Assembly (NCBI GenBank): GCA_947623175.1
Contig: CANQGK010000001.1
Span: 143,431 to 207,430 of the forward strand
Reading direction: 5' to 3'
Source: an uncultured Clostridia bacterium
GTDB taxonomy: Bacteria > Bacillota > Clostridia > Oscillospirales > Acutalibacteraceae
Length of the DNA: 64,000 bases
In this document: positions 63,569 through 64,000 of the stretch, one piece after another
Position numbering within the stretch: position 1 is the first letter of the stretch
Layout of the letters: each line of letters starts with the position of its first letter
Made by a program: the position numbers and the translations under genes
Notes under the pieces: generated by a model
The model's database searches: none
Seen by the model: the letters and a program-made list of their open reading frames with translations, nothing else
Told to the model about the DNA's origin: nothing

Positions 63569-63598
63569 TTTGCAACATAATCCGTATTATGTTGCAAA
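63569..63598 (+). repeat. inverted-repeat recombination-type site, left
   Basis: TTTGCAACATAA-TCCGTA-TTATGTTGCAAA: 12-bp arms around an asymmetric 6-bp core; 28 bp identical in inverse orientation to the right site. Confidence 0.85.
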
Positions 63599-63781
63599 CG
63601 GAAGTCGAGAAAAGCGGTTGTTGACAATTTAAAAGGAGCTTTGCACCCGAAATTCAGTAAAACGGGCGTAAAATTGGCGCACTTAAACAAGCCTTCGAGG
63701 TTTCAAAAATTTTGAAAATGGGGGAGGCTTGGTTAAACATACCTATATGCGCCGATTTGGCGATTTTTGTGATATTATGTA

Positions 63782-63810
63782 TTGCTTTTTTCAGTTTGCT
63801 GTGATATAAT
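63782..63810 (+). promoter_or_regulatory. sigma-70 promoter inside putative invertible segment, pointing right
   Basis: TTGCTT-N17-TATAAT (63782-63787, 63805-63810). Confidence 0.75.
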
Positions 63811-63851
63811 CAACAGGTAAATTCAGTTTGTGTTGCGAAAAATGCAAACAT

Positions 63852-63879
63852 TTTGCAACATAATACGGATTATGTTGCA
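63852..63879 (-). repeat. inverted-repeat recombination-type site, right
   Basis: TTTGCAACATAA-TACGGA-TTATGTTGCA, reverse complement of 63571-63598. Confidence 0.85.
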
Positions 63880-63880
63880 G

Positions 63881-63905
63881 ACCGTCGGTTTCCGGCGGTT
63901 TTTTT
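63881..63905 (+). terminator. intrinsic terminator just outside the right site, reading right
   Basis: ACCGTCGG-ttt-CCGGCGGT-TTTTTT. Confidence 0.75.
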
Positions 63906-63913
63906 ACGAGATT

Positions 63914-64000
63914 TTATAGTATCAGGTGCATCATTTCCATTTTGCGGCGGTGTTCCGCACCGGTGGAGATTATATAAATGCGTGTGGTGTCAATACTGCT
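63914..64000 (-). CDS. C-terminus of a probable tyrosine recombinase (partial)
   Basis: Minus-strand SSIDTTRIYIISTGAEHRRKMEMMHLIL*, resembling the catalytic-Tyr tail (TT.IY....) of tyrosine-type integrases; open at window edge. Confidence 0.65.
   Translation of the reverse strand, partial: SSIDTTRIYIISTGAEHRRKMEMMHLIL

What the first reader, a model, noticed from the sequence alone, without database searches (positions are those of the whole stretch)
63569..63916. Putative phase-variable invertible promoter, apparently captured in the OFF orientation
Two 28-bp sites (63571-63598 and 63852-63879) are exact reverse complements. Each has tyrosine-recombinase site architecture: 12-bp inverted arms TTTGCAACATAA/TTATGTTGCAAA around an asymmetric 6-bp core (TCCGTA vs TACGGA). 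The 253-bp segment between them carries a near-consensus sigma-70 promoter (TTGCTT-N17-TATAAT) pointing right, away from the 63529->60415 operon. Just outside the right site is a rightward terminator (63881-63905) although no plus-strand gene lies upstream, so its evident use is to stop transcripts from this promoter. Immediately beyond is the C-terminus of a likely tyrosine recombinase. Inversion would place the -10 at about 63645-63640, aimed at the three-gene operon. Sites, promoter and terminator are read directly; the switching function is inference from known invertible-promoter systems (Bacteroides capsule, C. difficile RecV switches). Caveat: a weaker + strand promoter-like pair TTGACA-N18-TATTAT (63561-63590) overlaps the left site.
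Basis: partly seen in the sequence, partly recalled or inferred. Interest (0 to 1): 0.87.

Follow-up and report, generated by a model that had tools for sequence, protein, structure and literature searches.

The report
Invertible promoter switch beside its recombinase
This gut bacterium carries a 253-base piece of DNA with a promoter that a neighbouring enzyme can almost certainly flip, turning a three-gene surface operon on or off; it is one of several such switches in this genome and belongs to a family found in roughly a third of the sampled genomes of its order.

Summary
In detail: exact 28-bp inverted sites at 63571-63598 and 63852-63879 (20 random controls: longest 11-14 bp), a promoter at 63782-63810 facing away from the operon, a rightward terminator, and the last 28 codons of a tyrosine recombinase with the catalytic Tyr. 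The contig ends there.

The own genome holds 11 perfect-arm sites ACATAA-N6-TTATGT, 10 of them in cassettes beside this recombinase subfamily. In 45 of 46 two-site loci from other genomes the 6-bp cores match in inverted orientation; cores differ between cassettes. Orthologous loci show the segment in opposite orientations between collinear flanks (L115 and L136 versus L138). A locus with the window's own operon (L144) has the segment deleted at the site.

Two terminators appear conserved: one stops the OFF-facing promoter before the recombinase (41 of 59 loci; 0 reversed); one inside the segment faces opposite to the promoter, so OFF would also block read-through into the operon.

A 2025 study already reported read-level inversion for a Clostridia inverton group tied to tyrosine recombinases, probably this family. 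So: a new member of a known kind, with unreported design detail. No reads were available; flipping at this locus is inferred.

The parts
63571..63598 (+). distal (operon-side) recombination site, TGCAACATAA-TCCGTA-TTATGTTGCAAA
   Evidence: exact 28-bp inverted partner of 63852-63879; ACATAA-N6-TTATGT motif
63599..63851 (.). invertible segment (253 bp), captured with its promoter facing the recombinase (OFF)
   Evidence: bounded by the sites; homologous segments occur in both orientations in relatives; deleted at the site in orthologous locus L144
63782..63810 (+). sigma-70-type promoter TTGCTT-N17-TATAAT with extended -10; would lie at 63668-63640 on the - strand after inversion
   Evidence: in 50 of 58 cassettes the best promoter's -10 lies 24-60 bp from the end it faces, versus 8-15 in shuffles
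63676..63753 (-). conserved internal hairpin (core 63689-63730), terminator-like on the - strand, i.e. facing the operon in the present orientation
   Evidence: fold -25.1 kcal/mol, z -2.9; position and arms shared by 42 cassettes. T-tail weak in this copy (AATTTT)
63852..63879 (-). proximal (recombinase-side) recombination site
63881..63905 (+). intrinsic terminator T1, stops transcripts of the OFF-facing promoter before they enter the recombinase gene antisense
   Evidence: -14.2 kcal/mol; equivalent present in 41 of 59 cassettes in this direction and 0 of 59 in the other
63914..64000 (-). 3' end (28 codons and stop) of the dedicated tyrosine recombinase, cut by the contig end
   Evidence: complete gene in the same position in orthologous locus L144
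63134..63529 (-). operon gene 1, 131-aa membrane-anchored protein
   Evidence: near-identical orthologue beside the recombinase in L144; no Pfam or NCBIfam hit
61962..63107 (-). operon gene 2, 381-aa predicted lipoprotein with a C-terminal zinc-ribbon-like region
   Evidence: homologues share the C-terminal region with zinc-ribbon proteins of Clostridia
60415..61929 (-). operon gene 3, 504-aa multi-pass membrane protein with Cys-rich region

Best explanation
The segment 63599-63851 is an invertible promoter. A tyrosine recombinase encoded just beyond the window edge binds the inverted arms and exchanges strands within the 6-bp core. In the assembled orientation the promoter faces the recombinase gene and is stopped by the terminator at 63881-63905, and an internal hairpin faces the operon and blocks read-through, so the operon is OFF. 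After inversion the promoter faces the operon from about 100 bp upstream of the first start codon, so it is ON. The target is a three-gene cell-envelope operon. Because strand exchange needs matching cores and each cassette in the genome has its own core, each switch should flip independently without recombining with the others. Shown: sites, promoter-like sequence, terminator fold, recombinase fragment, the inverted arrangement in relatives, and the deletion in an orthologue. Inferred: flipping and transcription control at this locus, the terminator role of the internal hairpin, and recombinase identity beyond its last 28 residues.
For: Own genome: 11 sites, 0 with the reversed control pattern, almost all in core-matched cassettes beside this recombinase subfamily. 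Relatives: 45 of 46 two-site loci have complementary cores, none palindromic, 32 distinct cores. Opposite orientations of orthologous loci: L115 and L136 (ON) against L138 (OFF) have collinear flanks (56-76%), and the inner segment aligns only when reversed (66-70% against 48% forward, shuffles about 47-48%); L121 against L129 reversed 71% against 49% forward. The intact paralogue cassette C5a in the same genome has the promoter ON. Promoter position is conserved. T1 is conserved in direction, 41 against 0 of 59, and is kept in at least eight ON-state loci where it has nothing to stop at present. Contig ends pile up at the switch: 20 downstream against 4 upstream within 500 bp, p 0.0015, as expected for mixed orientations. 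L144: same operon beside an intact recombinase, with the segment excised at the site.
Against: No reads or second strain show this locus inverted. The window's recombinase is known only from 28 residues, because near-identical copies apparently collapsed in the assembly (C1 and C36 end at the same base). The -35 is weak (3 of 6). The internal hairpin's T-tail is poor in this copy. Assemblies are biased to OFF (42 against 14), which could include locked loci.
Confidence: 0.92

Rival explanations
1. The element is a genuine switch by descent but is now locked OFF: this copy no longer inverts.
For: The orthologous locus L144 has lost the segment; the own genome has a truncated cassette at the C4 end with one site only; OFF excess 42:14.
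Against: Both sites here are perfect over 28 bp, cores match, and the promoter and T1 are intact; degenerate cassettes elsewhere show decayed arms. The recombinase end is intact and recently duplicated.
Confidence: 0.05
2. A cwpV-type switch: the promoter lies outside and inversion toggles a terminator in the leader RNA.
For: An internal hairpin with terminator features is conserved; C. difficile cwpV works this way (PMC2784873).
Against: Only about 40 bp separate the distal site from the start codon, with no operon-facing promoter there. A promoter inside the segment at a fixed distance from the site is the best-conserved signal. The only upstream external source is the recombinase gene.
Confidence: 0.04
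3. The repeats are ends of a mobile element or MITE, or integration sites, not a regulatory switch.
For: Several copies exist in the genome, and tyrosine recombinases often mobilise DNA.
Against: Sites are confined almost entirely to cassettes next to the recombinase, with cassette-specific cores and unrelated flanking operons. The genome does carry a real MITE family, which looks quite different. No target duplication was seen.
Confidence: 0.02

Closest known systems
Inverton group 139 with invertase group 35 in Clostridia (Microbiome 2025, PMC11892184)
   Same: Short inverted repeats (14-26 bp) about 205-227 bp apart by the coordinates quoted for Clostridium sp. D5 and Intestinimonas butyriciproducens, a tyrosine recombinase nearby in nearly all cases, mostly Clostridia; inversion seen in reads.
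   Different: The IR motif is in a supplement that could not be read, so identity of the families is likely but not proved. The passages read do not describe cassette-specific cores or the paired terminators.
E. coli fimS / FimB-FimE
   Same: Tyrosine recombinase gene next to an invertible promoter; an orientation-dependent terminator downstream of the recombinase gene is described for fimE (cited in PMC2784873).
   Different: fim uses two recombinases with IHF and Lrp and a 314-bp element (own knowledge). Here there is one recombinase per cassette and several cassettes per genome.
C. difficile RecV switches (cwpV, flg)
   Same: Clostridial tyrosine recombinase of the XerC/D type controlling surface functions by inversion (PMC2784873, PMC5903667).
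   Different: RecV is remote from its targets and acts on several; cwpV's promoter is outside the segment. Sequence relation to RecV not tested.
Bacteroides invertible promoters (Mpi, Tsr)
   Same: Several invertible promoters per genome driving surface structures.
   Different: Mpi is a single master serine recombinase acting across the genome (PMC5903667); here each cassette carries its own tyrosine recombinase.

Membership tests
Invertible-promoter phase switch with adjacent tyrosine recombinase | inverted recombination sites with identical asymmetric core | tested here: met
Invertible-promoter phase switch with adjacent tyrosine recombinase | promoter inside the segment, facing outwards near one site | tested here: met
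   (sequence only)
Invertible-promoter phase switch with adjacent tyrosine recombinase | tyrosine recombinase gene adjacent | tested here: met
   28-residue C-terminus with catalytic Tyr here; full gene in paralogue C5a and orthologue L144
Invertible-promoter phase switch with adjacent tyrosine recombinase | both orientations exist in nature | tested here: met
   in the family: L115 and L136 against L138, L121 against L129, C5a against the other cassettes; not for this locus itself
Invertible-promoter phase switch with adjacent tyrosine recombinase | both orientations within one population, and orientation-dependent transcription | not testable with these tools
   needs reads, PCR or RNA
Inverton group 139 / invertase group 35 | tyrosine recombinase near the inverton, class Clostridia, similar size | tested here: met
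   inner length here 253 bp, family mostly 200-280
Inverton group 139 / invertase group 35 | IR motif of the group | not testable with these tools
MITE or dispersed repeat | copies dispersed independently of a recombinase, with target duplications | tested here: not met
Serine-invertase switch (Hin/Gin/Mpi) | serine recombinase | tested here: not met
   PF00589 family

The most novel reading that the evidence does not exclude
These cassettes are a portable, insulated switch module: recombinase, guard terminator, site, then a segment with a promoter at one end and an opposing terminator inside, then site and operon. Inversion swaps 'promoter facing operon' for 'terminator facing operon', and a private core sequence serves as an address that keeps many near-identical modules in one genome from recombining with each other. 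Because recombinase read-through also meets the flipping terminator, orientation could feed back on recombinase mRNA, as with fimE, and help explain the OFF excess.
Probability: 0.5. Interest if true: 0.7.

Novelty: new member of a known kind. Interest (0 to 1): 0.55.

Why it matters
It identifies by sequence a phase-variation module in ruminant and other gut Clostridia, in 118 of 399 genomes sampled from the order and 79 of 172 genera. It gives a clear site motif and rules (matched private cores, fixed promoter position, two terminators) by which the state and target of each switch can be read from a genome. The targets seen include SipW/TasA-like fibres, BspA-like and dockerin surface proteins, a sortase pilus, a dlt-like operon and zinc-ribbon envelope proteins. 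How two cores in one cassette change together while staying identical is now a testable question.

Tried and rejected
MITE or dispersed repeat: rejected. A consensus RNA fold on the MAFFT alignment of the internal hairpins gave no pairs, because loop-length differences misaligned the arms; anchoring on the CC/GG pair gave 81% paired positions against 41-65% when slid, but the anchoring selects for stems, so this is supportive rather than proof. Finding the same locus in the opposite state in a close relative: the operon's lipoprotein has only distant relatives in 61 related genomes; L144 has the operon but lost the segment. The recombinase body is absent from the assembly. The equivalence with inverton group 139 could not be closed without the supplement. 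A literature search for invertible promoters in Oscillospiraceae returned nothing, and a search for inversion-controlled dlt operons returned no relevant paper.

Full report
What is there. The window is G000:C1:143431-207430 of a 2.38-Mb, 54-contig assembly, and the window end is the contig end. The promoter TTGCTT-N17-TATAAT at 63782-63810 has a perfect extended -10 and a poor -35. The terminator at 63881-63905 folds at -14.2 kcal/mol. The last 28 codons of a gene on the other strand match the C-terminus of a tyrosine recombinase at 82%, including the catalytic tyrosine.

It is one of a set. ACATAA-N6-TTATGT occurs 11 times in the genome, and its reversed control 0 times. Ten of the sites fall in cassettes next to this recombinase subfamily: the window, the C36 end, C5:14.9-15.3 kb (three sites), the C5 end and the C4 end. 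One site lies alone on C48. The core is the same within a cassette and different between them (TCCGTA, TCCCCA, ACGGCA, TTTATA); the nearly identical C4-end and C5-end cassettes share one. C1 and C36 stop at the same base inside the recombinase gene, which fits collapse of near-identical copies and explains why the gene body is missing here.

It is widespread. A profile of the recombinase subfamily hits 118 of 399 genomes of the order, in 79 of 172 genera. A scan of one genome per species gave 80 loci, nearly all Clostridia MAGs from animal gut. Where enough downstream DNA is held, most carry the same layout: recombinase, 15-80 bp, site, about 200-280 bp, inverted site, operon. Of 46 loci with exactly two perfect-arm sites, chosen without regard to the core, 45 have cores that are reverse complements of each other; none of those cores is palindromic and 32 are distinct. 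The one exception is a direct pair at a contig end. Some members with decayed arms still keep matching cores (L105, L137, L147, L157, L159, L175, L178).

It inverts in nature. Homologous segments align end to end in opposite orientation relative to the recombinase. Most telling, L115 and L136 (promoter toward operon) and L138 (promoter toward recombinase) are orthologous loci: flanks on both sides are collinear (56-76% identity), while the segment itself aligns only when reversed (66-70% against 48% forward, with shuffles at about 47-48%). L121 and L129 show the same on the recombinase side. Contig ends concentrate just downstream of the recombinase (20 within 500 bp against 4 upstream, p 0.0015), as expected if assemblers meet mixed orientations. 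These are relatives of the window locus; the window locus itself has been seen in one orientation only.

The same operon elsewhere. L144, a rabbit-gut MAG contig, carries the window's operon directly after a complete recombinase of the family. Its first gene is close to 90% identical in DNA. There the segment is gone: recombinase stop, terminator, one partly decayed site, then the leader and start codon. This supplies the missing recombinase by orthology and shows that the site is where the DNA was rejoined. The third gene there is split into two frames, which may be decay or error.

How it probably works. Promoter: in 50 of 58 cassettes the best promoter lies 24-60 bp from the end it faces, against 8-15 in shuffles. 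By this measure 42 cassettes are OFF, 14 ON and 2 unclear. Guard terminator T1: between recombinase and proximal site, 41 of 59 loci have an intrinsic terminator pointing toward the recombinase and none the other way. It is useful only when the promoter faces the recombinase, yet at least eight ON-state loci keep it, which argues that the segments keep flipping. Internal terminator T2: 42 cassettes share a mid-segment hairpin (typically AAGCCTTTTC...GAAAAGGCTT) followed by a T-rich stretch on the side away from the promoter. Since the promoter never transcribes it, its plausible use is to stop recombinase read-through from entering the operon in the OFF state. That role is inferred, and the T-tail in the window copy is weak.

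Target. The window operon encodes a 131-aa membrane-anchored protein, a 381-aa lipoprotein and a 504-aa membrane protein, with no Pfam or NCBIfam match; their homologues are uncharacterised, some with zinc ribbons. Other cassettes control SipW/TasA-like, BspA-like, dockerin and collagen-like proteins, a sortase pilus operon and a dlt-like operon. An envelope function for the window operon is inferred.

Known or new. Inversion of promoters by a neighbouring tyrosine recombinase is a known kind. A 2025 survey (PMC11892184) reported Clostridia inverton group 139, linked most strongly of all its pairs to tyrosine recombinase group 35, with read-level inversion in Clostridium sp. D5 and Intestinimonas butyriciproducens; the quoted coordinates give 14-26 bp repeats about 205-227 bp apart. 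This is probably the same family, but the IR motif could not be compared. Not found in the passages read: the private-core rule and the two opposed terminators. Hence: new member of a known kind, with a possibly new variant of the design.

Noticed in passing
window 58082-58352: A 271-bp MITE with 25-bp terminal inverted repeats (GTCAATGCAATCAGATTACAATGCG) and TA on both sides interrupts an AraC-type regulator gene; about 25 full-length copies at 84-100% identity in this genome, and some contigs end inside it.
   Followed up: partly
G000:C5:14.9-20 kb (L018): A dlt-like operon (AMP-ligase, decarboxylase, MBOAT, DltD-like position) sits behind a cassette in the ON state with three sites, two of them direct repeats, so both inversion and a 113-bp deletion are possible.
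   Followed up: partly
G000:C4 end (L096): A truncated cassette: recombinase, one site and promoter, then unrelated DNA with an IMP-dehydrogenase-like gene; identical to the C5-end cassette up to the breakpoint.
   Followed up: partly
L097, L093: In cassettes without a separate guard terminator, the proximal site itself (TGACTACATAATATAAATTATGTAGTCA followed by GC and T7) looks like the terminator.
   Followed up: no
80 loci: Assembled orientation is biased to OFF (42:14); whether this is biology, selection or assembly bias is open.
   Followed up: no
G000:C48:5456: A lone perfect-arm site with core AAGGTA and no perfect-arm partner; its meaning is unknown.
   Followed up: no
L209-L227: More distant members in near-complete genomes have similar layout but arms drifting to ACAAAAT-type sequences, with ON and OFF cassettes in one genome.
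   Followed up: partly
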